A stretch of 37,879 nt of DNA from NCBI GenBank assembly GCA_003646175.1, contig QNER01000005.1:1-37879 (forward strand), written 5' to 3'. A model generated the notes under the pieces. The model was given only the letters and a program-made list of their open reading frames with translations. It made no database searches and was not told the DNA's origin. This stretch comes from Candidatus Parabeggiatoa sp. nov. 1 (GTDB taxonomy: Bacteria; Pseudomonadota; Gammaproteobacteria; Beggiatoales; Beggiatoaceae). The position numbers and the translations under genes are program-made. Below, piece after piece: positions 9,363 to 36,433 of the stretch. The number at the start of each line of letters is the position of its first letter. Within the stretch, counting starts at the first letter, position 1.

Positions 9363-10964
9363 ATGCGTTTTATGAAGTGGGCTGGGCTTGGTGCTGTCAT
9401 CAGTGTCGCCGTGGGAGTCGCCGTGTTTTATCCCCGCACTGATGCAGCAACCATCAAAAATGTCATCTTTGTGATCGGTGATGGCATGGGGTTCCAACAA
9501 GTGGGGTTGCTTAATTCTTACGCCAAGTATGCCCCAAACTCCATTTACAAAGACAAAGATGGCAAAACGGCGATAGAGGAAGCCATCGCTGAAGGAACCA
9601 TTGGAATTGCCTATCACGAAGCTGCCAATGTCTTAGTGACCGATTCTGCGGCAAGTGCTACCCAATTCGCTACCGGAAAAAGTGCCGGCTCGGAAATGAT
9701 TGGTTGCGATCAATTTGGTGATTCCGTCGGAACCATTCTCGAAATCGCTAAGAAGAAGGGGAAATCCACAGGGTTAGTCTCTGACACACGCATTACCCAT
9801 GCCACGCCGGCCGCCTTTGCAGCCCATCAAACCCATCGTGGCAAGGAAAATGCCATTGCCGTTGACCTTTTAAACAATGAGGTGGATGTCATGCTGTCAG
9901 GCGGATTGAGATACTTTATTCCTAAGGCTGCTAGTGACAAAAACTCGGCCATTCATCAACAACTCAAAACGCGCACCGGTGGTAGCCTCGAAATCAAGTC
10001 CAAGCGCAAAGACAATCGCAACTTGTTGGATGAAGCGGAACAGAAGCATTACGCACTCGCCTTTACTAAGGCTCAGTTGGAACAAGCAAAAGGCCCAAAA
10101 ATACTCGGCCTTTTCAGCTATTCTGGAATGCCAAATGGTATTCAAGAAACGTTGACCAAAAACGATCCCAAGCGCACGGTTCCCACTTTGAGGGAAATGA
10201 CGATCAAAGCGTTGGACGTGCTTTCCAAAAACGACCAAGGATTTTTTCTTCTGGTAGAGGCTGGACAGATCGATTGGGCAGGGCACGATAATGATGTCGG
10301 TACCCTGTTACACGAAATGCTGAGATTTGATGACACCCTCGAAGCTGTCTCTGAATGGGTGAAAGATCGTAATGACACCCTCCTTATCATTTCCGCGGAT
10401 CATGAAACCGGCGGTTTCGGGTTTTCTTATTCTCGCAGAGAACTCCCCAAGCCAACAGATTTACCAGGGCAACTTTTCAAGGACGAGAAATTTAAGCCCA
10501 ATTTCAACTTTGGCGGTTACGATATTTTGGACAAGCTATACCAACAACAGCTCAGTTATCCCGATATTATGAGCGAATTTGATGGTTTGTCACAGAAAAC
10601 ACCAGAGAAATTGGCAGAGCTGGTGAATAAGTACACAGTGTTTCCTATCACCACAACCGAAGCTGCCGCTATCTTGGAAGAGGAAGAAAACGAATACCGT
10701 GTTCCCGGACATTCGTATTTGGGCACCGAAATGTTTCCTAAAGTCCATGACTTTAAGGAATTTTACGTTTATGGCAGTGAAGTGCATCGCGATCTGTTAG
10801 GCCGGGCGGTGGGCAAATACCAAAATGTGGTTTGGGCAACCGGCACCCATACCAGTACGCCGGTTCCTCTGATTGTCTTAGGGCCAAAAAATGTGACAGC
10901 CCAATTTGGTAGACTGCTGCATACCACCGAGTGGGGAAAATACGCGATTGAAGCGTTGCAATAA
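9363..10964 (+). CDS. phoA: Alkaline phosphatase, PhoA family, secreted
   Basis: A phosphomonoesterase that would release phosphate from organic esters outside the cytoplasm, 533 aa. A signal peptide (KW, then a hydrophobic run to about A28) precedes the mature protein. Catalytic features of the PhoA fold are all visible: GDGMG with metal ligand D40; the nucleophile S95 in VTDSAASAT; E299, D304 and H308 in VEAGQIDWAGHD, with the same spacing as E. coli E322/D327/H331; D346-H347 in SADHETGGF; and H496 in TGTHTSTP. The start is ATG 9363 with AGGAGAGA at 9349-9356; an upstream TTG at 9327 is in frame but lacks this site and would spoil the signal peptide. No Pho box was recognised upstream. It stands alone. 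Confidence 0.95.
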   Translation: MRFMKWAGLGAVISVAVGVAVFYPRTDAATIKNVIFVIGDGMGFQQVGLLNSYAKYAPNSIYKDKDGKTAIEEAIAEGTIGIAYHEAANVLVTDSAASATQFATGKSAGSEMIGCDQFGDSVGTILEIAKKKGKSTGLVSDTRITHATPAAFAAHQTHRGKENAIAVDLLNNEVDVMLSGGLRYFIPKAASDKNSAIHQQLKTRTGGSLEIKSKRKDNRNLLDEAEQKHYALAFTKAQLEQAKGPKILGLFSYSGMPNGIQETLTKNDPKRTVPTLREMTIKALDVLSKNDQGFFLLVEAGQIDWAGHDNDVGTLLHEMLRFDDTLEAVSEWVKDRNDTLLIISADHETGGFGFSYSRRELPKPTDLPGQLFKDEKFKPNFNFGGYDILDKLYQQQLSYPDIMSEFDGLSQKTPEKLAELVNKYTVFPITTTEAAAILEEEENEYRVPGHSYLGTEMFPKVHDFKEFYVYGSEVHRDLLGRAVGKYQNVVWATGTHTSTPVPLIVLGPKNVTAQFGRLLHTTEWGKYAIEALQ

Positions 10965-11088
10965 AAAACCGGCCGGAACAAAAGAAGTGTTTCTTCATTT
11001 GTTCTAGAACGGTATATAATAATTTGTAGGGGCAATCCTTTATGGTTGCCCCTTTGAAATTGATTTCTCAAAAACCAGAAAACGTTCA

Positions 11089-11268
11089 ATGAATGAGACA
11101 ACGCCGCTTGAAAAACCACGTTTAAAACGTTTTTCCGTAGAAAACTTTAAAGCATTTCGCAACAGCACACTGGATTTAGCACCGCTGACTATTTTGATTG
11201 CTGAAAATTCGGGAAAATCGTCCATTGACAGAATCAGAACCAAGTTTTTTCGTACCAGGTTCGCCTGA
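11089..11268 (+). pseudogene. Truncated AAA ATPase (OLD/RecF-like) N-terminus
   Basis: ATG 11089 opens a frame reading LKRFSVENFKAFRNSTLDLAPLTILIAENSGKSSID, the start of an SMC/OLD-type ATPase. Families of this type usually carry GxNSSGKSS; here one residue is missing (ENSGKSS) and the frame runs into repeat DNA at about 11245, stopping at 11266. A second coding-looking piece, ELLNQQALLIADSKRWLAEF (11337 to about 11412), lies just past the palindrome and could be another part of the same gene. The repeat shared with 24823-24905 probably interrupted it. Only a remnant remains. Confidence 0.65.
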
Positions 11269-11282
11269 AACGAATGATAATG

Positions 11283-11325
11283 TGATCGAGGCAAAAGTTT
11301 GCTCCGCAAACTTTTGCCTCGATCA
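11283..11325. repeat. 43-bp palindrome, loop TCC
   Basis: TGATCGAGGCAAAAGTTTGC, loop TCC, then the exact complement. The same palindrome lies at 24860-24902 with loop GGA, the reverse complement of this one, inside matching flanks (GTTTTTTCGTAC on the left, ATTGTCAAG on the right). Confidence 0.85.
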
Positions 11326-11446
11326 TTGTCAAGGTAGAATTACTCAACCAACAAGCTTTGTTAATTGCTGACTCCAAACGTTGGCTGGCCGAATTTGAAC
11401 AACGTTATCTTTGTACAGGACCAAAAATGTAAATTTGTGATAAATC

Positions 11447-11482
11447 GTGATGCTATCGCTTTTTTTTTTGCGATAGTATCAC
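11447..11482 (+). repeat. GATGCTATCGC hairpin
   Basis: GTGATGCTATCGC, a T-rich loop, then GCGATAGTATCAC, with the fixed G-U wobble on the plus strand. An inverted copy lies 70 bp downstream (11550-11582), so the two could also pair with each other. Confidence 0.75.
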
Positions 11483-11549
11483 TAAAACAATAGCATTGGT
11501 TATTGTATCAATGAAGGATTTTGGCACATAGAGAAGGATAACCGCAAAA

Positions 11550-11582
11550 GTGATACTATCGCAAAAAAAGCGATAGCATCAC
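11550..11582 (-). repeat. GATGCTATCGC hairpin, inverted copy
   Basis: Reads GTGATACTATCGC, A-rich loop, GCGATAGCATCAC on the plus strand; the wobble pair forms on the minus strand. Confidence 0.75.
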
Positions 11583-11787
11583 GAAGTACTTTAAAATCAA
11601 TCTGTTATAATTTTGTCCTGCATATAGCAACGTTATGCGATTATTCAAAATTCATTCACACGATTACGATTGACAGCGCATTCTTTGGAAAAGTCATATG
11701 GAGAGGAGTACAAGGCGAACCTTGTACGAGAGGGCGTGGTGATTGAAATCTTTGTACAGGACAATCATTTTTATTTTTAATTTTTTG

Positions 11788-12147
11788 ACTGATGTTACGC
11801 ACTACGCTTCAAAATGAGTCCAGAGGGGCAACCATAAATTATTTCCATACATTTAGCGAGTTATTAGAGGGCAATCCCTCGCGGTTGCCCCTTTTAACGG
11901 CCATGAACAACCTCAAATCGCGAATAGCAAATGATGGCCTTCGCATTTCATTTAAAAACTCTTATAATGCACAACGCTTCAAAATGAGTTCACAGGGGCA
12001 ACCATAAAGGATTTCCCCTATATATCGTTACATATTGTAGGAGCAATTCCTTTGCGGTTGCCCTTTCACCAAACATCATCATGATATGGAACTTTCCGCT
12101 TTATTGCACAAACTGTGACAAGTCGAAGCAATGTGCGTAACATCAGT
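11788..12147. mobile_element. 360-bp inverted-repeat element
   Basis: Perfect 15-bp terminal repeats ACTGATGTTACGCAC (11788-11802) and GTGCGTAACATCAGT (12133-12147), with similarity continuing inward to GCTTC/GAAGC. The interior has a direct repeat (ACGCTTCAAAATGAGT followed by GGGGCAACCATAAA near 11801 and 11973) and several GTTGCCC motifs. There is no coding capacity and no obvious target-site duplication. Confidence 0.6.
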
Positions 12148-19033: not shown

Positions 19034-19088
19034 TGAAAATGATTTCCACAGGTTCCACCTGTGGCTATTCACATTCAACCCCTTCGGG
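19034..19088 (-). repeat. AACCCCGAAGGGGTT/GTGAATAGCC dispersed repeat
   Basis: The inverted form of a repeat also seen at 28355-28404 and 31736-31993: hairpin CAACCCCTTCGGGGTT linked to GGCTATTCACA and a CCACAGG/CCTGTGG hairpin. It is followed by TTTCGGGAA/TTCCCGAAA arms (19124-19150), which lie just upstream of the ribosome-binding site of the next gene and could form a leader hairpin. Confidence 0.65.
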
Positions 19089-19186
19089 GTTGGCGCGAGT
19101 TATTGAAAGTTTTTACCCGTTGTTTCGGGAATGACGGAAGATTTCCCGAAATAACTTTCTTTCTCAACTTAAAGAGGAGTTTTAAT

Positions 19187-19648
19187 ATGTTATCTTCCTT
19201 AAAAACAGCCATCTCGGGCTCCATTATGATGGGGGTTGCCATCAATGGGGCTTATGGCCAATGTGTGTCTGAAGGTAAAGGTGCCCCGATAAAGGACAGC
19301 ACTGGAGATTTTGCCCATTACTTTCTCAATCGTGCTAATGTTTCTACCAACAACAAGCGCTACCCAATGGGGGAATTATTTTTTGCGTTGAGCAAACAAG
19401 ACAAGCGCGTTCAGTTGGGGAAATATAATGGTCAATGTTGGACTGAAATCAGTGGTTGGGTTGAGACCAAATACCTGATTGAAGGTTTACATCCTATCAG
19501 GGTAGGGGAGGCGGCCAAACAATTTCCGCAATTAACCAAAGAAGCGGGGGTTAAATCCGACAGTACTTTATGGCTACGTGCGCTGCAAAAGCCAGAATAT
19601 TACAAGCAAAATCCCCTAACCGCCCCAGATCCCAACCAAGCGGCCTAA
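19187..19648 (+). CDS. Exported VWA protein, N-terminal part (ends at an in-frame TAA)
   Basis: ATG 19187 follows AAAGAGGAG (19171-19179). A signal peptide (SLKTAISGSIMMGVAINGAYG) is cleaved near Q26. The segment RYPMGELFFALS...GKYNGQCWTEISGWVE resembles a bacterial SH3-like domain. The frame stops at TAA 19646-19648, but the same frame resumes at once (KEVGLKGLAYRW...) into the VWA part. The piece therefore looks like the first 153 residues of an 837-residue protein broken by one nonsense codon. An upstream in-frame start at 19061 lies in repeat DNA and is rejected. The gene follows the ABC operon after 217 bp. Confidence 0.75.
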   Translation: MLSSLKTAISGSIMMGVAINGAYGQCVSEGKGAPIKDSTGDFAHYFLNRANVSTNNKRYPMGELFFALSKQDKRVQLGKYNGQCWTEISGWVETKYLIEGLHPIRVGEAAKQFPQLTKEAGVKSDSTLWLRALQKPEYYKQNPLTAPDPNQAA

Positions 19649-19654
19649 AAAGAG

Positions 19655-21700
19655 GTGGGTCTTAAGGGGTTAGCCTATCGTTGGCGACATGTCTACGCTA
19701 TCGACTTGGTAGGGGCACAACTGTGGTATCTTGTTGGTAGCCAAAGCCGGTTGTTGCCCAATCCCAGAAAAGATACTACCGTCTCGCCAGATGTGCTACT
19801 CGGTTGGGTACCGGCCAAGGCTAACCAAGTCTTGGCGACGAATATTGGCTTGGAACTCAATACGATCAAGGGCTCGGTGGATGAACGGGTCAATAAAAAC
19901 CAACCGGTCATCCTCTATGAGGCACCGCAAGCCAATAGTAAGGTCTTATCCAAGGAAGCCTTGGAGGTTTGGGATGATTATAAAAGGGGCCAAAAAACCT
20001 CCGGCACCACCGCTTGGATTGAACCGGTAGGCCTCGAGCCAGAGTATCCTCGTTTTTACATTCACGACTTCAATGAGGAGGCCAAGGACTGGTATCACGT
20101 CTCGACTTGGGGCAGTGTGGGTGACACGCTTAAACCCAGTGACATCACGCTACTTGCTGGACAACTACAGGCCACGTTAGATCGTCTTCGGACGGTTGAT
20201 ATCGTGGTGGTTTTCGACCGTTCAGGGAGTATGTCTAATGAACTGAATGCTCTGAAAACTTGGCTGATTGATTTTTCCAGAGATTTGGCAGGGATTAACG
20301 CTGGGAAAACAACCGCCCTCAAATTTTTTGGTCAAGATGAACAGTTTGTGATTGGCTTGAAAATCAATTTGAGCTTGGTGCTTTTTGAAGCCAAACGAGA
20401 CTATCCTATCTTTAAGAGAGTCAAACTGCCCACTGGACTCACTCAGGTGGTTAATGGCATTAATAGTATCAGTCTCATAGGCGGGTATGAAACCCTATTT
20501 GATACCCTGACCCGAGTTGTTCCAACCAATTCTGGTTATTGGGAAGACGGTGGTTTTTCCCAGCGGTTTATTCTGCTTATGATGGACGAACCCGGCGATG
20601 TAGGGGATAGGACCGAAGCTGATGTCAGGCGTGCCTTGCCGCTACCGAGAGAAGCACTCATCAAAATGGGTTATAATCCCAACCAGATACCTGCGGTGGA
20701 GTGGACCAAAATTTGGGGCGTGTATACAGAATCTAATGTTGCTGCCTTTAGAAGCAACGTTGATGACTTCATTGTTGGAAAGCGTTTAAGACATCTACCC
20801 AACTTTGAAAAAATGCCTAATCAAACCCAACGGTTTAGGACCGAAATGAAGCAGGTTCTCAATGAACTTCAAAAGGAGATAGAACAGAGAGCTAAACGCT
20901 TTGGTAACCTACTCATACAAGAACACCAAACCAAGAAGCAGCAAGGAGGTCAACGTCAATCAAGTACCAATATTCCTGTCACCATGAAATTACAGGATGC
21001 GGCCATTCAGGCAGCACTCAAAGATGCTGGCACCAGTCTCAAAGAACTTTCTGCCATTGTTGGTGTTGCGTTTGTCGAGGGCTATATTCCACTGAAAGAT
21101 CAAGGCCGTCGCTTTCCATCGGTACAGGAAGTCGTCGTACTGGAAGAAAAGGAACTGAGAACCCTACGTGATAATGTTTATGGCATCGGGAGTCAGATCG
21201 AGAAATCTTTTCAATCGACTGCACTCAATAGTGGTAAGTTGGGTGAACTGAGGGGAAAAGTCGGATCAAGTAATCGGCGGGAGCAAATTGCAGCAACTCT
21301 GCTTTATGCGATATTAGCCACGATTGGCGATAGGGCAACCTTAGACGCGCTCGCCAAAATGGAAGCACTGGCGTTGCTGACTTTTATTAGAGACTGGTTG
21401 AAAGAACAAGCAAAGAACAGCATTGCGGCCATAATGGGAATGCAGACGGCGATAGAAACCAGTTCCAAAGGGTTACTCAACCGCCCTCTGAAAGAGATTG
21501 TGGAAATGGATCCCAATACCATTCGTAGTGAGGCAAGGCTTCTGCTCAACAAATCCCATTGCATGGGGCTCATTTTAAAAAGCAGAACCATACCTCTGGA
21601 GACAGAAAAATGTCCTTCTCAGCAAGGCGTTCAAAAACGTTGGGAATATGAACAGGGCAGCGAAAACTACATCTACGTTCCGATGCGCGTGATTCCGTAA
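19655..21700 (+). CDS. Exported VWA-domain protein, main part
   Basis: This is in the same frame as the preceding piece, two codons after its TAA; the GTG at 19655 has no good ribosome-binding site of its own. After a second SH3-like stretch it carries a VWA domain with MIDAS DRSGSMS (D344, S346, S348 numbered from ATG 19187), a candidate T in GGYETLFD, and DEPGD as the likely acidic ligand. A long helical region follows and the protein ends with a Cys pair (SHCMGL, EKCPSQQG). VWA proteins bind ligands through a metal ion; beside a MacB-like transporter this could be an adhesion or assembly factor in the envelope. The terminator at 21766 ends the cluster. Confidence 0.8.
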   Translation: MGLKGLAYRWRHVYAIDLVGAQLWYLVGSQSRLLPNPRKDTTVSPDVLLGWVPAKANQVLATNIGLELNTIKGSVDERVNKNQPVILYEAPQANSKVLSKEALEVWDDYKRGQKTSGTTAWIEPVGLEPEYPRFYIHDFNEEAKDWYHVSTWGSVGDTLKPSDITLLAGQLQATLDRLRTVDIVVVFDRSGSMSNELNALKTWLIDFSRDLAGINAGKTTALKFFGQDEQFVIGLKINLSLVLFEAKRDYPIFKRVKLPTGLTQVVNGINSISLIGGYETLFDTLTRVVPTNSGYWEDGGFSQRFILLMMDEPGDVGDRTEADVRRALPLPREALIKMGYNPNQIPAVEWTKIWGVYTESNVAAFRSNVDDFIVGKRLRHLPNFEKMPNQTQRFRTEMKQVLNELQKEIEQRAKRFGNLLIQEHQTKKQQGGQRQSSTNIPVTMKLQDAAIQAALKDAGTSLKELSAIVGVAFVEGYIPLKDQGRRFPSVQEVVVLEEKELRTLRDNVYGIGSQIEKSFQSTALNSGKLGELRGKVGSSNRREQIAATLLYAILATIGDRATLDALAKMEALALLTFIRDWLKEQAKNSIAAIMGMQTAIETSSKGLLNRPLKEIVEMDPNTIRSEARLLLNKSHCMGLILKSRTIPLETEKCPSQQGVQKRWEYEQGSENYIYVPMRVIP

Positions 21701-23128: not shown

Positions 23129-23762
<634 letters not shown>

Positions 23763-25047: not shown

Positions 25048-25241
25048 TTGAGTTGTTTGAAAAAAAACTTTTCGCTATTCGCCATTGGTGCAGATATTGG
25101 TAAAGTAATTATATTCATATTACCCATTCGCATTTAGGATCGCTATCTCTTGATATTACCCATTCGCCATTCACCGTTCAAAATTGTTTATTCCCTATTA
25201 GCGAATATCTGAATGTTAATCCAATAGGAAGAATTTATACT

Positions 25242-27512
25242 ATGAAAGCTTTTGCAGAACTATCTATCAAGCGTAAGCTGATTTTGATCACAATGTTAAC
25301 CAACATAGTCGCATTGTTGGTTGTCTCAGCATTTTTTGCCACTTATCAAGTGAAATCATTGCGCGAGGCGAGGGCACGTCATTTTGGGGTGCTGGCTCAT
25401 ATAGTTGGTATCAATACAATCGTCGCATTGTCAACAGATGACAAGGATTCCGCCAAACAAATTTTAACGGCTTTCCATGCACAATCAGATGTAACAGCCG
25501 CTGTTCTTTATAATAAATATGGTGACGTATTTGCACAATATAGGCGCGAAGACGTAAATATTTTTTCGCTACCGGCGATGCCAGATACCGGTTATCACTT
25601 GAGTTCAAACCATGTCGGGTGGTTTGAAGAAATTCTTGATCACAGCAACAAGCAAAGAATTGGCACCCTCTATATTCAATCGGATTTAGAAGGGTTCAAT
25701 CAATTAGTTAAAGAATATGCGGGCATAATAGGGGTGGGTTTATTGATCTCATTACTGCTCGCCTGGTTGTTGTCTGCCAAGCTGCATACCATGATATTTC
25801 GGCCTCTTTTACTTATGGTGAAAACCGCCGACGCAGTGACTCAGAAAAGCGATTACCGCATCCGCGTTCAACGGTATGGCAATGATGAACTGGGTACACT
25901 GGTTGATGCTTTTAACAAGATGTTGGTGCAAATCCAAAACCGTGATGAGAAGTGGGCTCAAGATCAAGCACATCTGGAAGAACAAGTTAGATTGCGTACT
26001 GCTCAGTTGGCTGACATTCATTCGGATTTAGAAGAAAAAGTAGAGCATTTGCAAAAGGCAATAGAAACTGCCGGGGTTAAACGTGAACGCATGGAAGATA
26101 CCAAGACGCAAATGAGTACAGATTTAGCTAAAGAACATCCATTGCGGATATTATTAGCTGAAGATAATTTGACTAATCAAAAGGTTGCTGTGCTTCTTTT
26201 GAAGCGTCTAGGTTATTCTACGGATATTGTTGAAAATGGAGTGGAAGCGGTGGAAGCGGTGGTGCGACAACCTTATGATGTGATTTTAATGGATGTGCAA
26301 ATGCCAGAAATGGATGGTATAGAAGCGACTAAACGCATTCGTCAGTGTCATTTTCCGGTGAACAGTTGTTATATTATGGCTATGACAGCACATGCGACTT
26401 CGGTTTATAAGAATAAATGTTTAGAGGCGGGTATGGACGGTTATATCACCAAGCCAGTACGCCCCAATGAGTTAATGGATGCCTTGATACGTGCTTTTCA
26501 ACATAAATCAGTTATTGAGCATCAATCATCAATGAGTCATGAGCAACCATTGGAGAATCAGAACACCATAAGTTTAGAAGTTCAAGAAACTGAAAACTCA
26601 TCACCGAAAACCGAACTGATACCGGCACCTTATAACTCAATTGAGTCTGAAGCGTTGCTGGTGCAACTCCGTACTGCCTTATATGAATTAGCCGGTGAAG
26701 ATGAACCTGAAATTGTCAATGAGTTGATTAAAATCTATCTTAGCAGTAGTGCAGAGCTAACGACAAATTTACCAGCGGCGATAGCTGAACAAAATCCCGC
26801 TAAACTTGAACAAGCCGCTCAGAGTCTCAAATCACACAGTGCCAGTTTGGGGGCTACCACGCTTGCTGAATTGTGTGGGCAACTTGAGCAACAGGGACGT
26901 GCGGGTAATACGAGCGATGCTGTGGAAACAGTACAGCGTGTTTTGTCTGAGTATGCGCTGGTTAGTCATCAATTATCATTTATCAAGCATTCAACCATTC
27001 AAGAAACTAAAAAAGTGATTCCGGTTAATTCACCACCGATTACAGAAGAAACTGAAAACTTAGCATGGCTGGTGCAAGAGATTAAAAACACGTTGACGGA
27101 TTTTCTCGGCGAGGAACCTGAAATAATTCACGACTTGGTACAAACCTATCGGGCTGATGCTAAAAAGTTAATAAACGATTTATCTGAAGCGACTGCCCAA
27201 AGCGATGCGAATACCTTAGCACAAGTAGCGCATTCTCTAAAATCAAGCAGTGCTCATTTGGGAGCCCACCAGTTAGCTTCTCTTTCTTTCAACTTGGAAA
27301 AACAGGGTCAAACTGGCGATTTGACGGATGCTTCAGCACAATTAGCACAAATTGAAGTTGAATTTAGTCTTGTGGATATCGCTTTGGAACGAGTCTGCGG
27401 TTCTCTGAACGAGATAATGCTTGAACCGTTGATGACTAAAGTCGCCCCCGTCACTGTTGAACCGACTCACTCTGTTGCGTATACCAATACAGCCGGTAAA
27501 AATGTTCAATGA
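25242..27512 (+). CDS. CHASE8-HAMP-REC-HPt-HPt phosphorelay protein lacking a kinase domain
   Basis: Inner-membrane signalling protein, 756 aa. Two membrane helices (about 13-35 and 160-182) bracket a periplasmic CHASE8-like sensor. A HAMP domain (185-236), a coiled coil (to about 290) and a receiver follow (about 302-420; acceptor D351 in VILMDVQMPEMDG, K in ITKPVRP). Two HPt domains end it. HPt2 has the normal phosphorylatable His, H664 in AHSLKSSSAHLGA. HPt1 reads AAQSLKSHSASLGA, with Q527 where the His belongs. BarA-like hybrid kinases have HisKA and HATPase domains between HAMP and REC; here REC follows the coiled coil directly, so phosphate must come from another kinase. ATG 25242 follows TAGGAAG. 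No partner is adjacent. Confidence 0.9.
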   Translation: MKAFAELSIKRKLILITMLTNIVALLVVSAFFATYQVKSLREARARHFGVLAHIVGINTIVALSTDDKDSAKQILTAFHAQSDVTAAVLYNKYGDVFAQYRREDVNIFSLPAMPDTGYHLSSNHVGWFEEILDHSNKQRIGTLYIQSDLEGFNQLVKEYAGIIGVGLLISLLLAWLLSAKLHTMIFRPLLLMVKTADAVTQKSDYRIRVQRYGNDELGTLVDAFNKMLVQIQNRDEKWAQDQAHLEEQVRLRTAQLADIHSDLEEKVEHLQKAIETAGVKRERMEDTKTQMSTDLAKEHPLRILLAEDNLTNQKVAVLLLKRLGYSTDIVENGVEAVEAVVRQPYDVILMDVQMPEMDGIEATKRIRQCHFPVNSCYIMAMTAHATSVYKNKCLEAGMDGYITKPVRPNELMDALIRAFQHKSVIEHQSSMSHEQPLENQNTISLEVQETENSSPKTELIPAPYNSIESEALLVQLRTALYELAGEDEPEIVNELIKIYLSSSAELTTNLPAAIAEQNPAKLEQAAQSLKSHSASLGATTLAELCGQLEQQGRAGNTSDAVETVQRVLSEYALVSHQLSFIKHSTIQETKKVIPVNSPPITEETENLAWLVQEIKNTLTDFLGEEPEIIHDLVQTYRADAKKLINDLSEATAQSDANTLAQVAHSLKSSSAHLGAHQLASLSFNLEKQGQTGDLTDASAQLAQIEVEFSLVDIALERVCGSLNEIMLEPLMTKVAPVTVEPTHSVAYTNTAGKNVQ

Positions 27513-28869: not shown

Positions 28870-29280
28870 GTGAATATGAACGACATTACTTTGGAACAAG
28901 CACAAGCGGCTATTGCCGCTGCCATTGAAAAAGCCAAAGCGTTAAATACCAAGATGGATATCTGCGTTGTGGATGCCGGTAGCAATCTCAAAGCTTTTAT
29001 GCGTATGGATGACGCTTGGCTCGGTAGCATTGACATTGCTATTAAAAAAGCTCGCACCGCCCGTTTTTTCGACATGAATACCGGTGAGATTGGCAAGTTG
29101 TCCCAACCTGGTGGCCCACTCTACAACATTGAACATAGCAATGGTGGTCTCATCACTTTCCCGGGGGGATTGCCCATCAAAAATGAGCAAGGTAAAATTA
29201 TCGGTGCCATTGGTGTGTCTGGTAGCACAGTTGAAGATGATCATATTGTTGCCAAAGCAGGCGCAGAAGTGGTAAAGTAA
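28870..29280 (+). CDS. GlcG/HbpS-like protein (DUF336 family)
   Basis: A 136-aa single-domain protein of the GlcG/HbpS family, whose members bind haem or small cofactors and are often of unknown role. Family features are clear: the helix [63 protein letters not shown], and the closing [20 protein letters not shown]. There is no signal peptide, so it is cytoplasmic. GTG 28870 has AGGAGA 6 nt ahead (28858-28863); ATG 28876 would be 12 nt away and is the alternative. It stands alone between repeats. Confidence 0.9.
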
Positions 29281-29334: not shown

Positions 29335-29505
29335 AAAATCACTACATGTACAACCAAAAATAATTTAATTAATTAAGCTTGGCTATATTTGAGTTTGGCT
29401 GGTTAAAGACGATTCCAAAATGAGTTGCAGTGGTGGGTAAATCAACTTGAAAAACTGATACCCATCATTTTACAACGACACAAGAAAGAGGTAGAGGTAA
29501 ATGAG

Positions 29506-30495
29506 ATGCCATTGAATGAAAAGCAGTCAGAACTTATTGACGCTTACCAATCACTTGTTAAGAAGGAAGGATATCCTGATTGGGCAGTCAAAAATCGGAA
29601 AACGAATGGATACATTAATCCCAGTATTCCTTATATTGGAGAAAAATACTTTACAAAAAAGCGTAAGATAGCCATTTACGCAATGGCGGAAAGTTTGACT
29701 TATTACCTGAACAGCAATGATGAAAATCCGCTACTAGAATCCGACGATGCTTGGAATCGTCACGGGGTTTCTTTTACTCACTGGCTGGCTTCTCCCCAAG
29801 AAGGTCGTCATTTTTTTCCGGATGTTCATATTCAGCCGATCAATAGTGGGGGGCTATTATGTGCAGCCGCTTTTATCTTGTACAAAATGGGGTGGGATTT
29901 TAATTCGATTGGAGAACCAAAAGATTTTCTCAGTGAATTAGTGGTGGCTCATTATGGAAAATTTTCTTGTCGGGAGAAAACGAGTAAGGATTATGCTCGC
30001 AATTGGAAATTGCTTCGTCCTTCTCTTCCATATTTGGAGAAGGATTTAAACGTATTACAGCCTGATGTCCTAATATTTGTAGGAACAATTTTCCGACATA
30101 AGCAGGTTGCGAAACAAATCCGCTCTTTATTGCCAAATTCCACTATTTTTCCTATTTATCAATTTGCGCCACGGATTATACATGGTCATCTCTTAGCAGA
30201 GTTTAATGAAAGAGCAGGAGGCTTGGAAAAAGAATTGGCGGATAAATTTCCGTTATTAAGCAAATGGACAAATAAGATGAAGGGTTATAACATGACAGGA
30301 ATCTACCGTTTTTATGCACACCTTGAATCTGTCATCAATTCAGCAAGCGTAGGCGGGAAAGAGCAAACATCGGCTGAGTTGAAACCCTCACTACCCTCCC
30401 CTACAACAACAGCAAGCGTAGGCGGGAAAGAGCAAACATCGGCTGAGTTGAAACCCTCGCTACCCTCCCCTACAACAGCAATATCAAGCCCGTGA
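29506..30495 (+). CDS. Unrecognised cytoplasmic protein with C-terminal 23-aa tandem repeat
   Basis: 329 aa from ATG 29506, which has AGGT at 29495-29498; a TTG at 29425 is in frame but has no ribosome-binding site and starts in non-coding-looking DNA. There is no signal peptide or membrane segment. DVLIFVGTIF (a strand with a Gly turn) and FPIYQFAPRIIHGHLL recall uracil-DNA-glycosylase-fold proteins, but only weakly, and I do not assign that function. The last 46 residues are two copies of a 23-aa unit, ASVGGKEQTSAELKPSLPSP plus TTT or TTA, before ISSP. The tail is probably disordered and derived from inserted repeat DNA. Confidence 0.75.
   Translation: MPLNEKQSELIDAYQSLVKKEGYPDWAVKNRKTNGYINPSIPYIGEKYFTKKRKIAIYAMAESLTYYLNSNDENPLLESDDAWNRHGVSFTHWLASPQEGRHFFPDVHIQPINSGGLLCAAAFILYKMGWDFNSIGEPKDFLSELVVAHYGKFSCREKTSKDYARNWKLLRPSLPYLEKDLNVLQPDVLIFVGTIFRHKQVAKQIRSLLPNSTIFPIYQFAPRIIHGHLLAEFNERAGGLEKELADKFPLLSKWTNKMKGYNMTGIYRFYAHLESVINSASVGGKEQTSAELKPSLPSPTTTASVGGKEQTSAELKPSLPSPTTAISSP
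30343..30480 (+). repeat. Intragenic 69-bp tandem duplication
   Basis: Two 69-bp units (30343-30411 and 30412-30480) that differ at very few positions and keep the reading frame. The unit contains GTAGGCGGGA and CCCTCCCCTAC, which form an inverted repeat like intergenic repeats of the window. Confidence 0.9.
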
Positions 30496-31585: not shown

Positions 31586-32080
31586 ATTATGTATCCTTAT
31601 AGCAATTTATCACATTTTCATTTGATGATTTTAATTTAGATGTCAACAAGACTGTAGACCATTTTCACTAGAGGGTTTTTTTTAAGTACTTCATTTTATT
31701 GACGATAATTAAATAAAAGTGAGCCATCATTTTATCAACCCCGAAGGGGTTTTCAGGCTAAAGTACAGCAAAGCTAAACTTTTGCCTTTCAGGTAAATGT
31801 TTCGCTCAAAGTACATTTACCTGAAAATGTGAATAGCCCTAGGTGCAACCTAGGGGAAAAATCTCAACCCCGAAGGGGTTTTCAGGCTAAAGTACAGCAA
31901 AGCTAAACTTTAGCCTTTCAGGTAAATGTTTCGCTCAAAGTACATTTACCTGAAAATGTGAATAGCCCTAGGTGCAACCTAGGGGAAAAATCGAACCTCC
32001 CGCTAGTTAGTATATTATCATTTGGGAGTTGCCTTAATGAACTATTCCCAACAAAAAGGAATGGGGGTTTGGTTCAACCA
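31586..32080. other. Gene-free region with a 129-bp tandem duplication
   Basis: Contains the promoter side of the FmdB-like gene, the tandem repeat at 31736-31993, and the right end of a GGTAACTCC-family element (TATATTATCATTTGGGAGTTG, ending near 32035, then TTA). No left end of that element was found. Confidence 0.6.
31736..31993. repeat. 129-bp tandem duplication
   Basis: Units 31736-31864 and 31865-31993 are almost identical. Each holds CAACCCCGAAGGGGTT, an AAAGTACAGCAAAGCTAAACTTT segment, TTTCAGGTAAATG paired with CATTTACCTGAAA, and GTGAATAGCCCTAGGTGCAA. The near identity implies a recent duplication inside an element related to copy C of the GGTAACTCC family. Confidence 0.85.
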
Positions 32081-32995
32081 CTAATTATTGCCCCTACAAG
32101 TCATTGGCATGATATAAGCCTCACGCACAAAGTGTTTGACGGCCTTTTCCTTAGCCAAGGCTTGTTGTTTATTATCAAAGGCTCCCATCATCACAACAAT
32201 TAAGCCCCCTGTCAAACCATCACAAAATTCGCTGTCTGTCACAATCACATTATTGTCATTTCTTCTAAGCCGTTTGCTACGTTTATTGGCTAACTGATAA
32301 CCATTGTGAGTTTGAGGGTAAATACCCAAAATGACATACCATTCTTTGGCTGAATTCGTTCCTGAACCCCTCACTGTTGCTTGCTGAACATAAGCATCAG
32401 GCACTATTTTTAAAACCACACCCAGTTCGGCCCAATTTTGGGCATCAATTTGATTAAAGGGCCCTGTCATCACAATATATAAGCCCTTTGTAAAACCAGT
32501 GTAAAAATCGCTTTCTCCAACAATGAAATAATCCTGATTCAAAATGTTGTTGGCTCTGAATTGGTTCCTGAGCATAAGGGCAGCATTTAGACCTCTTTGA
32601 GTCTGTAAAAAACTGCCCAAAATAACATACCAAGTCTGCGCTTGATGTTCGTGTTCAGGTATGCTTGGTTTTTGTTCTGAACATTGCCAGCCCCATTTAT
32701 CCTCCAACTTATGGTGGATAAAATCATTCATTTTCCGCTCACAATAACCCGCTTTATTTTCAGCAGACCACAATATTTCACTATGGTCCGGCATTTCCGT
32801 GGTTTTTTCATATATGACTCGGCACGGCACATAGGCGCCCACAAATAAATAGTCCAGCGTCAAAATCCGTCTTTTGTCTTGGTTTGAGCATATAACGACG
32901 CTATCTTCTGGCCCCGTGTCGATGGCTACCGCAATTCTCAAGTCACCTAAAACAGTGATAGCGATTATTAAGAGGCTGATAAGTGCTTTCTTCAT
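32081..32995 (-). CDS. Exported protein with two SPOR-like repeats
   Basis: 304 aa. ATG 32995 follows AAGGAGAA (33001-33009 on the plus strand); an in-frame extension to 33112 is rejected because it lacks a site. A signal peptide (MKKALISLLIIAITVLG, cleavage near AVA) is followed by a Cys-containing domain (VICSNQ, VPCRVIYE, YCERKMNDF, WGWQCSE) and two SPOR-like repeats opening QTWYVILGSFLQT and KEWYVILGIYPQT, each closing with a GPF/GAF...A pattern and AYV or AYI. SPOR domains bind denuded peptidoglycan at division sites; whether these do is untested. Its paralogue is encoded about 0.9 kb upstream on the same strand. Confidence 0.8.
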   Translation of the reverse strand: MKKALISLLIIAITVLGDLRIAVAIDTGPEDSVVICSNQDKRRILTLDYLFVGAYVPCRVIYEKTTEMPDHSEILWSAENKAGYCERKMNDFIHHKLEDKWGWQCSEQKPSIPEHEHQAQTWYVILGSFLQTQRGLNAALMLRNQFRANNILNQDYFIVGESDFYTGFTKGLYIVMTGPFNQIDAQNWAELGVVLKIVPDAYVQQATVRGSGTNSAKEWYVILGIYPQTHNGYQLANKRSKRLRRNDNNVIVTDSEFCDGLTGGLIVVMMGAFDNKQQALAKEKAVKHFVREAYIMPMTCRGNN

Positions 32996-33155
32996 CCAAA
33001 TTCTCCTTATTGATTGTTGCAAAAAAGCCAGCTTTATCACTTTATTAGTTGATAACAATATTATTGATAGTGAAAGTAAAATGATTTGTTGTATCAAAAG
33101 GAAGTTTGTCAAAAAGTGAGCAGCTATCTATCTGTTGTTAAGTGTTGTAACCGTG

Positions 33156-33928: not shown

Positions 33929-34579
33929 TCATAATCCCTTCTTTGGCACAATTTGCTGAACAGAAGCATTAGACACAATTTCTCGGACAGCATCCGTCTT
34001 GGCCCAATTTTCGGCATCGATTTGATTTTGAAAAGGCCCTTTCATCACAACATATAGGCCATCTGTCAACTCAGGATAAAAATCGCTTTCTCCAACTGAA
34101 AAATCATCCTGAGTCCAAATGTCGGATCTGAATTGGTCTCTGAGCTGAAGGCCAGAATTTAGGCCTTCTTGAGTTTGCGGAAAGCCGCCCAAAATGACAT
34201 ACCAGGTTTTAACTTGATCTCGACGTTCAGGTATCTGCCAAACCATGCTTTGTTCACGAGATGAACATTGCCAACCCCATTTCCCCTCCAACTTCTTGTG
34301 GATAAAGTCATCCATTTTCTGCTCGCAATAACCGACTTTATTTTCAGCGGACCACAAGATTTTACTGAAGCCCGGCTTTTCCGTAGGTTTTTCATAAATG
34401 ACTCGGCACGGCACACGGTTACCTGGGACCAGATAGTCCAATGTCACAATCCGTCTGTTGTCTTGGTTTGAGCATATAACCACACTGTCTTCTAGCCCAG
34501 TGTCGGTGGCTACCGCAATTTGGTCATCACCTAAAACGGCGATAACTATCACCAAGAGGCTGATAAGTGCTTTCTTCAT
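33929..34579 (-). CDS. Exported SPOR-like protein, shortened paralogue
   Basis: 216 aa, clearly homologous to the protein at 32081-32995: the same signal peptide (MKKALISLLVIVIAVLG), Cys-containing domain and first SPOR-like repeat (KTWYVILGGFPQT). The frame stops after VQQIVPKKGL. The DNA beyond the stop (about 33929 down to 33885) still aligns with the second repeat of the paralogue (AATTCAGCCAAAGAATGG and ATGTCATTTTGG in that gene), but with frame breaks, so the second repeat has been lost by decay. ATG 34579 follows AAGGAGAATC. Whether the shortened protein works is unknown. Confidence 0.8.
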   Translation of the reverse strand: MKKALISLLVIVIAVLGDDQIAVATDTGLEDSVVICSNQDNRRIVTLDYLVPGNRVPCRVIYEKPTEKPGFSKILWSAENKVGYCEQKMDDFIHKKLEGKWGWQCSSREQSMVWQIPERRDQVKTWYVILGGFPQTQEGLNSGLQLRDQFRSDIWTQDDFSVGESDFYPELTDGLYVVMKGPFQNQIDAENWAKTDAVREIVSNASVQQIVPKKGL

Positions 34580-35047: not shown

Positions 35048-36433
35048 TTATTGGGCCTCATTTCTACAATGTTGTGGTAAATACTTATTATCCACACCAT
35101 TGGGATGGCCCGAACTACACTTCCAATGACCTGTGGCTGGATTATAAGTCAGCCTGATGGTTTGTTCACCTATTGGGGAATGTTCTTTTCCAGACAGGGT
35201 TGCTTGGAAATAGAGCTGTTCGGGGTTTGAGACGATCTTCTCCACATACTTACTCGACGTTTTCCCCTTTATATCCGCGACAGATGGCGGAAATTTTTCC
35301 GTAAAGGAAAAATATTGTTCTGTCGGTGTCTTAAGTGCCTCTATAAAGTTAACGGCTTGCACAGTTTGGTAATGGTTTACATAATCTGTATGGGAATATT
35401 TTCCCAAATCAGAAGGTGAAATACCCATAGAAGCTATCACAACTATCACTCCTATAATGGCCGCAATAGGAAGCAACATAAGCATAATAATAGCGGTGAG
35501 TATTGCACCGGGTGAGCGATGTGCAGAACCGCCGGGAATGGCCTCTATCACAGTCGTATCGGCAATCAAATCATGCAGACAACGTCGAGACTTTTGGAAA
35601 ATGAATAGGGGATCGATTAAAACCACAGCGGATTTCCACCACTCTGGACCGATCCCTGCGATTATTTGTATGACGAAATAACGCAATCCGACAATCCGTA
35701 ATAATCCGGCCCGACTGCCATCGGTACGGACAATCTTAATGTCAAGCAAACGTTTGCCAATGGTTTGCCCATTCTGGTACAGCAATGTCCAGTTGATCGC
35801 GGTAAGAGCAATCCAACCTAAAACAACAAAACCCAATGGCCACACCATCGTTAACATCGCCTCCTCACTGCCCTTTCCACCATCCGCCAAAACAGAGGTA
35901 TCAACAAAGAAAGGCATTATCAAAATTGCTAAAAAAGGTAGGGATAAGAAAATGAGTACATCCACTAAGTGAGCCACCAAACGTGTATCGCGTCTTGCCA
36001 ATTCAAAGACATTGTCATTGGTGAGTCCTGTTGTCGGTGCCACAAAGGGTTGGTAAGGCGAAACGTTAGGCCCTTGAGGGTTGATTTGGGGTTGCCCTGC
36101 GGATTTCACGCCCGAATCATAAGCTTTGCGCTTTTCATGATCAGACAAAACCTGAACCGCCTCAGTCATTTCACTCATCTTCGCTGGGATTGCTTGAGCA
36201 ATTTCCGTATCCGTGGCATTTTGGTTAACGCCTAGAACTTCATAATAGGTGTTTGGCTTCCTAACCATTTTTGAGGGTTGGAGCGATGCTTGTGTCAGTT
36301 CGGCCCCAAGAGTTTTGGGCTTATCCGCCTCAACCAAACTTATGACGCTCCCATTGGAACCATTTCCCTTTGGTGGCACAATTTCTTGAAATTCCACCTG
36401 ATTAGTGTTTTGGTTAATAGCGTCAATTTTCAT
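35048..36433 (-). CDS. J-like / RDD membrane / type IV pilin-like fusion protein
   Basis: 461 aa with three parts. Residues 62-106 (YYEVLGVNQNATDTEIAQAI, then EAVQVLSDHEKRKAYD) match both ends of a DnaJ J-domain, but the middle, including the HPD motif needed to stimulate Hsp70, is absent. Residues about 146-298 are an RDD domain: ELARRDTRLVAHLVDVLIF, TIGKRLLDIKIVRTDGSRAG and CLHDLIADTTVIEA, with membrane helices near 153-174 and 197-216. Another helix (310-335) leads into a periplasmic domain, 340-456, that looks like a type IV pilin head: FPPSVADIKGKTSSKYVEKI, GHWKCSSG (C439), YLPQHC (C456). ATG 36433 has a weak AGGGA. It is monocistronic. The function is unknown; RDD proteins are often putative transporters. 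Confidence 0.85.
   Translation of the reverse strand: MKIDAINQNTNQVEFQEIVPPKGNGSNGSVISLVEADKPKTLGAELTQASLQPSKMVRKPNTYYEVLGVNQNATDTEIAQAIPAKMSEMTEAVQVLSDHEKRKAYDSGVKSAGQPQINPQGPNVSPYQPFVAPTTGLTNDNVFELARRDTRLVAHLVDVLIFLSLPFLAILIMPFFVDTSVLADGGKGSEEAMLTMVWPLGFVVLGWIALTAINWTLLYQNGQTIGKRLLDIKIVRTDGSRAGLLRIVGLRYFVIQIIAGIGPEWWKSAVVLIDPLFIFQKSRRCLHDLIADTTVIEAIPGGSAHRSPGAILTAIIMLMLLPIAAIIGVIVVIASMGISPSDLGKYSHTDYVNHYQTVQAVNFIEALKTPTEQYFSFTEKFPPSVADIKGKTSSKYVEKIVSNPEQLYFQATLSGKEHSPIGEQTIRLTYNPATGHWKCSSGHPNGVDNKYLPQHCRNEAQ

What the first reader, a model, noticed from the sequence alone, without database searches (positions are those of the whole stretch)
25242..27512. Hybrid sensor that has lost its kinase and the His of one of its two HPt domains
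REC follows the HAMP/coiled coil directly; there is no HisKA H-box or HATPase N/G boxes. Of two tandem HPt domains, the first has Gln (Q527) in the phospho-His position while the second is intact (H664). The periplasmic sensor would therefore gate a receiver and one HPt, with phosphate supplied from elsewhere; HPt1 may be a docking or decoy module. The sequence directly shows the absent kinase and the substitution; the relay model is inference.
Basis: partly seen in the sequence, partly recalled or inferred. Interest (0 to 1): 0.62.

Follow-up and report, generated by a model that had tools for sequence, protein, structure and literature searches.

The report
Membrane sensor lacking its kinase core
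A bacterial membrane sensor protein whose close relatives carry a built-in kinase has here lost that kinase in one clean cut, leaving only the parts that receive and pass on phosphate, so it may now depend on another kinase in the cell, or it may be a gene on its way out.

Summary
The 756-aa protein (25242-27512, +) is TM-CHASE8-TM-HAMP-coiled coil-REC-HPt-HPt with no HisKA or HATPase; HPt1 has Gln527 where HPt2 has His664. Relatives show what happened. In 19 of 19 other family genomes with a match at E <= 1e-60 the gene is a hybrid kinase, CHASE8-HAMP-HisKA-HATPase-REC1-REC2-HPt(2-6), in many with a further REC and a class III cyclase. Divergent wrbA upstream, shared with 7 of 19 relatives, marks the same locus. 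HPt1 has His in 18 of 18 relatives. REC, HPt1 and HPt2 are not accelerated against a same-genus relative, while the sensor is. Preferred reading: a kinase-less membrane phosphotransfer protein working like RcsD or RetS, fed in trans (confidence 0.45). Early decay and an assembly artefact remain open: one genome only, wrbA next door is frame-broken, no reads. New variant of a known kind, moderate interest.

The parts
25242..27512 (+). whole gene, 756 aa, kinase-less CHASE8-HAMP-REC-HPt-HPt protein
25362..25676 (+). CHASE8 periplasmic sensor domain (aa 41-145), flanked by two TM helices
   Evidence: Pfam PF17152 E 1.4e-8; TM helices read from the sequence, within AF2 helices 9-55 and 149-200
25794..25937 (+). 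HAMP domain (aa 185-232)
   Evidence: Pfam PF00672
25938..26069 (+). coiled-coil helix (aa 233-276), equals the pre-HisKA helix of relatives
   Evidence: alignment; AF2 helix 216-276
26070..26123 (+). deletion junction (aa 277-294): HisKA, HATPase and REC1 of relatives are missing here; the stretch resembles the REC1-REC2 linker
   Evidence: DNA matches to G028 end at 26077 and resume at 26122, to G029 at 26062 and 26121; AF2 pLDDT under 50 at 277-291
26148..26486 (+). receiver domain (aa 303-415), ortholog of REC2 of relatives; D351 codon 26292-26294
   Evidence: Pfam E 8.8e-29; residues; alignment
26685..26978 (+). HPt1 (aa 482-579), phospho-His replaced by Gln527 (codon 26820-26822)
   Evidence: profile 104 bits; PDB alignments
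27102..27389 (+). HPt2 (aa 621-716), intact His664 (codon 27231-27233)
   Evidence: Pfam, profile 107 bits, PDB
23138..23759 (-). wrbA-like gene, divergent neighbour that marks the locus; reading frame broken
   Evidence: 89% aa identity to G028 neighbour; 15-nt plus 2-nt deletion; the name wrbA is recalled, Pfam gives FMN_red

Best explanation
The gene is the syntenic ortholog of a family-wide multidomain hybrid kinase (CHASE8-HAMP-HisKA-HATPase-REC1-REC2-HPt repeats). In this lineage an in-frame deletion removed HisKA, HATPase and REC1, joining the HAMP/coiled-coil output helix to REC2 (shown by alignment). What remains most likely works as a kinase-less membrane phosphotransfer protein: REC2 (D351) and HPt2 (H664) exchange phosphate with another hybrid kinase or its response regulator, as a side-branch relay or phosphate sink; the sensor changes its geometry rather than a kinase; HPt1 (Q527) can bind receivers but not carry phosphate (all inferred). 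A candidate donor, by inference only, is the own-genome hybrid kinase on contig C41 (PilJ-HisKA-HATPase-REC-REC, no HPt).
For: 19 of 19 relatives at E <= 1e-60 in 42 family genomes keep the kinase. DNA-level collinearity with same-genus G028 and G029 on both sides of the gap, missing 1008 and 1098 nt, both multiples of 3. Shared divergent wrbA in 7 of 19 relatives. Junction falls between domains on both sides; in a rough simulation 2.5% of random deletions of 100 aa or more are clean and in frame. Receiver and HPt2 catalytic residues kept. In relative-rate counts against G029 (window-specific: G029-specific), REC2 (19:11, 16:10, 13:10, 14:16, 19:16), HPt1 (6:8, 9:9, 8:10, 8:11, 9:6) and HPt2 (9:12, 17:10, 9:8, 9:12, 12:7) show no clear excess, but the N-terminal sensor part does against G028 (50:21, 41:24, 51:21, 50:20, 50:11; p 0.035 to below 0.001); WrbA, as a control for the genome, does not (1-5: 2-4). 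dN/dS of REC2 with G028 about 0.12 over 64 codons. G028's own kinase has a separate 43-aa in-frame deletion between HisKA and HATPase, so the kinase may be dispensable in this genus. The C41 kinase is the best own-genome match to the G029 kinase module (50%), has no HPt and has orthologs in G029 and G028; the genome has only 11 Hpt matches, 2 of them here.
Against: Only one genome shows it, 80% complete in 1343 contigs. No kinase-less membrane sensor-REC-HPt protein among 63 REC+HPt ORFs from the 80 loci (the two without a kinase match have no apparent TM). wrbA next door is frame-broken, so deletions or errors occur here. In the REC tree the window has a long end branch (0.56, median 0.19), unlike the relative-rate result. 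HPt1 dN/dS with G029 is 0.34. Rates average over time before the deletion, so a recent loss would look the same. The C41 partnership rests on similarity and missing HPt only.
Confidence: 0.45

Rival explanations
1. Decaying gene: the deletion and the HPt1 His loss are early steps of pseudogene formation after the pathway lost its use in this genus; the product has no function.
For: Sensor part accelerated; HPt1 His lost; G028 kinase has its own 43-aa deletion; neighbouring wrbA is frame-broken; longer-than-median end branches of the window in both trees.
Against: ORF of 756 codons still open; clean in-frame junction; REC2, HPt1, HPt2 not clearly accelerated against G029; acceptor residues of REC and HPt2 kept.
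Confidence: 0.27
2. Artefact: a chimeric amplification product or misassembly skipped the kinase; the living cell has an intact hybrid kinase.
For: Draft genome, 1343 contigs; wrbA shows a 15-nt loss between short repeats and a 2-nt loss in a G run; only one genome has the form. A possible short microhomology at the junction, judged by eye, fits slippage of either kind.
Against: In frame and at domain limits on both sides (about 2.5% by chance). Other oddities of the same gene, Q527 and sensor acceleration, are not explained. A search with the G029 kinase module finds nothing closer than 50% elsewhere in the genome, so no stranded kinase fragment is seen.
Confidence: 0.2
3. Dominant-negative partner: through HAMP and coiled coil it forms heterodimers with another CHASE8-HAMP kinase (such as the one on contig C194) and holds it inactive or feeds from it directly.
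For: C194 encodes a CHASE8-HAMP-HisKA-HATPase protein without REC or HPt, 34.6% identical to the window protein in the sensor part.
Against: 34.6% is low for mixed dimers; no experiment; other partners equally possible.
Confidence: 0.08

Closest known systems
Family-wide CHASE8 multi-HPt hybrid kinase of the Thiotrichaceae group (L130-L148)
   Same: Same locus marker (wrbA) in several, same sensor, HAMP, REC2 and HPt order; highest sensor identity 60% to same-genus G028.
   Different: Relatives have HisKA, HATPase and REC1, 2-6 HPt and often REC3-cyclase; the window has none of the kinase part and its HPt1 lacks His.
RcsD of the Rcs phosphorelay (Enterobacteriaceae)
   Same: Inner-membrane protein with periplasmic domain, no kinase activity, passes phosphate by an HPt (passages of PMC5651002).
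   Different: RcsD keeps an inactive kinase-like part (recalled) and an ABL domain (passage) and has one HPt; here the kinase is cut out and a receiver with an intact Asp is kept.
RetS of Pseudomonas
   Same: Membrane hybrid sensor unable to autophosphorylate that takes phosphate from another kinase onto a receiver (passages of PMC5992135).
   Different: RetS has a degenerate HATPase and transmitter phosphatase activity; this protein has no HisKA to act so, but has HPt domains.
AHP6 pseudo-HPt of Arabidopsis
   Same: HPt without the His that binds kinases and inhibits phosphotransfer (passages of PMC4662812); compare HPt1.
   Different: AHP6 is a separate plant protein; HPt1 sits in tandem with an intact HPt; inhibition untested.

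Membership tests
hybrid histidine kinase | HisKA with H-box | tested here: not met
   no Pfam hit to E 1; region absent in alignment
hybrid histidine kinase | HATPase_c with N and G boxes | tested here: not met
hybrid histidine kinase | receiver with phospho-Asp | tested here: met
   D351, K404, T382, E307/D308
ortholog of the Thiotrichaceae-group CHASE8 multi-HPt kinase (by descent) | CHASE8-HAMP and REC2-HPt in order, DNA collinear with same-genus copies | tested here: met
ortholog of the Thiotrichaceae-group CHASE8 multi-HPt kinase (by descent) | divergent wrbA upstream | tested here: met
   window and 7 of 19 relatives
ortholog of the Thiotrichaceae-group CHASE8 multi-HPt kinase (by descent) | groups with same-genus copies in trees | tested here: inconclusive
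   REC tree: one group at 79/81; sensor tree: not grouped
RcsD | membrane phosphotransfer protein without active kinase, HPt with His | tested here: met
   architecture, H664; activity not tested
RcsD | kinase-like remnant in place of the kinase | tested here: not met
   the whole HisKA-HATPase region is absent
RcsD | ABL domain and an rcsB-type neighbour | tested here: not met
   a true receiver stands before the HPt; no LuxR-type regulator among neighbours scanned
functional HPt (HPt1) | phosphorylatable His | tested here: not met
   Q527
functional HPt (HPt2) | phosphorylatable His | tested here: met
   H664
pseudo-HPt like AHP6 | inhibits phosphotransfer by competition | not testable with these tools
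   needs biochemistry
RetS-like sink | accepts phosphate from another kinase | not testable with these tools
   needs biochemistry

The most novel reading that the evidence does not exclude
One deletion turned a self-contained hybrid kinase into a sensor-gated, kinase-less membrane phosphotransfer hub with a built-in blocked HPt, now fed by a separate HPt-less kinase (such as C41): a new RcsD-like component caught soon after it arose, in a genus whose sister species is damaging the same kinase independently.
Probability: 0.3. Interest if true: 0.55.

Novelty: new variant of a known kind. Interest (0 to 1): 0.38.

Why it matters
Kinase-less phosphorelay proteins such as RcsD and RetS are known, but (from general knowledge) how they arise is mostly inferred from diverged proteins with dead kinase domains. 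Here the intact form is present in same-genus and same-family genomes, the lost block is well defined, and the remaining acceptors are intact, so a short route from hybrid kinase to trans-fed phosphotransfer protein could be tested directly. If instead it is decay or artefact, the family itself (sensor kinase with up to six HPt domains, some with a cyclase) is still a useful system for asking why HPt domains multiply.

Tried and rejected
Divergent ATPase hidden at 237-300: rejected, the stretch aligns to a coiled coil and a linker. Fusion of the sensor with the receiver of a paralog: rejected as unlikely, the REC matches same-genus REC2 (77% over 64 residues with G028) far better than the C41 REC (47%). 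Kinase encoded elsewhere as a split gene: searched the own genome with the G029 kinase module; best hit C41 is a complete kinase with its own PilJ sensor and has orthologs in G028 and G029 beside their full-length gene, so it is not the missing half. Split-off REC3-cyclase: best own-genome match 37%, no clear remnant; several relatives seem to lack it too. The downstream kinase found in several relatives: own-genome best 42%, no clear ortholog. Other genomes with a kinase-less form: none in 42 family genomes at E <= 1e-60, none among the matches in 369 class genomes at E <= 1e-55 (4 genomes matched, all of the family), none with a membrane sensor among 63 REC+HPt ORFs. Fourth genus member G030: only distant matches, best 34%, not followed. 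The sensor tree did not recover the same-genus group. AF2 model has low overall confidence (pLDDT 68.6, pTM 0.37), used only for local structure; no fold search was run. Paper searches for kinase-less hybrid or pseudo-HPt proteins gave RcsD, RetS and plant pseudo-HPts; two searches returned nothing. The TAACTGA repeat reported for related giant sulfur bacteria was sought as a double unit and not found in the window.

Full report
What is there. The ORF at 25242-27512 (+) encodes 756 residues. Pfam gives CHASE8 (41-145), HAMP (185-232), one receiver (303-415) and two Hpt domains, with no HisKA or HATPase up to E = 1. The receiver keeps E307/D308, D351, T382 and K404; HPt1 has Q527 in AQSLKSHS, HPt2 has H664 in AHSLKSSS. 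Q527 aligns with the His column of solved HPt proteins in the two alignments shown.

What it was. In 42 genomes of the family (own included), 20 have a match at E <= 1e-60, so 19 besides the window (asked for the order, returned the same 42). I fetched all 19 loci. All 19 ORFs carry the SHEIRTP H-box and the GLGL box; 18 are complete (1244-1895 aa, stop to stop), G028 is cut by its contig end at 699 aa. The architecture is CHASE8-HAMP-HisKA-HATPase-REC1-REC2-HPt, with 2 to 6 HPt domains, in many followed by a third REC and a class III cyclase domain (Pfam run on 3 of the 19: G001, G029, G028).

Same locus. A divergent wrbA-like gene lies upstream in the window and in 7 of 19 relatives (G028, G039, G040, G015, G006, G005, G016). 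At DNA level the window matches same-genus G028 from 25238 to 26077 (73%) and again from 26122 (79%); in G028 the two parts are 1008 nt further apart, in G029 1098 nt (worked out). Both are multiples of three. G028 itself lacks 43 residues of the kinase that others have (H-box to GLGL 139 versus 182 in most), so the loss in the window is 366-379 residues: HisKA, HATPase and REC1. The window's receiver is REC2. The AF2 model ends its long helix at 276 and is of very low confidence at 277-291, where the junction maps (weak model, pTM 0.37).

HPt. A profile finds 61 HPt domains in the 18 complete relatives; 59 have His at the phosphorylation site, and the two that do not (G029 and G015) are the last of their row. 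HPt1 has His in 18 of 18; the window is the only one with a changed HPt1. HPt1 is otherwise ordinary: 63% identical to HPt1 of G029 and not faster evolving by count.

Selection. In Tajima-type counts with five outgroups, the sensor part (1-275) has changed faster in the window than in G028 (50:21, 41:24, 51:21, 50:20, 50:11) and than in G029 (49:23, 41:29, 45:24, 49:19, 43:27); G029 against G028 is near even in four of five (29:26, 27:22, 30:21, 25:25, 37:14). REC2 shows no significant excess against G029 (p 0.14-0.72); HPt1 and HPt2 show none by count (p-values not computed; the largest, 17:10, is in HPt2). WrbA shows no excess. dN/dS: sensor 0.42 with G028, 0.29 with G029, against 0.23 for G028-G029; REC2 0.12 with G028 (64 codons), 0.21 with G029; HPt1 0.34 with G029; HPt2 saturated (ratios). 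Against this, the tree of REC domains gives the window a long end branch, 0.56 with median 0.19. The outgroups share sites, so the counts are not independent tests, and they cannot date the deletion.

Artefact or not. The genome is a draft of 1343 contigs, 80% complete; the window is the whole of contig C5. wrbA next door has lost 15 nt, probably between short ACTC repeats, and 2 nt of a G run, so small losses, real or technical, occur here. A simple simulation on the G029 protein says 2.5% of random deletions of at least 100 aa leave all flanking domains whole and in frame (domain limits partly set by hand). Together with Q527 and the sensor acceleration, this favours a real change, without proof.

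Who could feed it. The own-genome protein closest to the lost kinase is C41:5557-7851, a PilJ-HisKA-HATPase-REC-REC protein without HPt (50% to the G029 kinase module). It has orthologs in G029 (67%) and G028 (71-75%, frame-split), so it is a standing genus kinase that would need an HPt from elsewhere. The genome has 11 Hpt matches, 2 of them in this protein, against about 150 matches to the query, most over the receiver. That C41 uses this protein is inference. C194 encodes a second CHASE8-HAMP kinase without REC or HPt.

Known parallels. RcsD lacks kinase activity and passes phosphate by its HPt (passages of PMC5651002). RetS cannot autophosphorylate and takes phosphate from GacS onto its second receiver (passages of PMC5992135). 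AHP6 lacks the HPt His and inhibits (passages of PMC4662812). Multidomain kinases of a related bacterium, Maribeggiatoa, were described as often duplicated and swapped (passages of PMC5108060). The protein works most like RcsD or RetS but is a member of neither; by descent it is a reduced member of the multi-HPt kinase family. I found no paper on this form with the searches (listings and the passages named), in an open-access library only.

Verdict. Observation confirmed; interpretation partly supported; a new variant of a known kind. Function as a trans-fed phosphotransfer protein 0.45, decay 0.27, artefact 0.2, dominant-negative partner 0.08.

Noticed in passing
L133 (G028 C162) 9748-11844: The same-genus ortholog has a 43-aa in-frame deletion between HisKA and HATPase, removing what is probably the start of the catalytic domain; its kinase may be impaired.
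   Followed up: partly
window 23138-23759 (-): wrbA-like gene 89% identical to G028 but frame-broken by a 15-nt loss and a 2-nt loss in a G run.
   Followed up: yes
L138 7748-12817 (-), L137 6523-11481 (+): Relatives carry up to six tandem HPt domains, and many a C-terminal REC plus class III cyclase: kinase, relay and cyclase in one protein.
   Followed up: partly
window 30341-30477: 69-nt unit repeated twice (98%) inside the ORF 29425-30495.
   Followed up: no
window 31735-31992: 129-nt unit repeated in tandem, 99% alike, outside the larger ORFs.
   Followed up: no
window 35048-36433 (-): One ORF matches part of DnaJ, an RDD membrane domain and a pilin domain, an odd combination.
   Followed up: no
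window 32081-33112 (-) and 33929-34579 (-): Two ORFs that look like copies of each other; no Pfam match for the first.
   Followed up: no
window 19061-19648 and 19655-21700 (+): Two adjacent ORFs that may be one broken gene.
   Followed up: no
window 28870-29280 (+): HbpS-like haem protein gene downstream of the finding.
   Followed up: no
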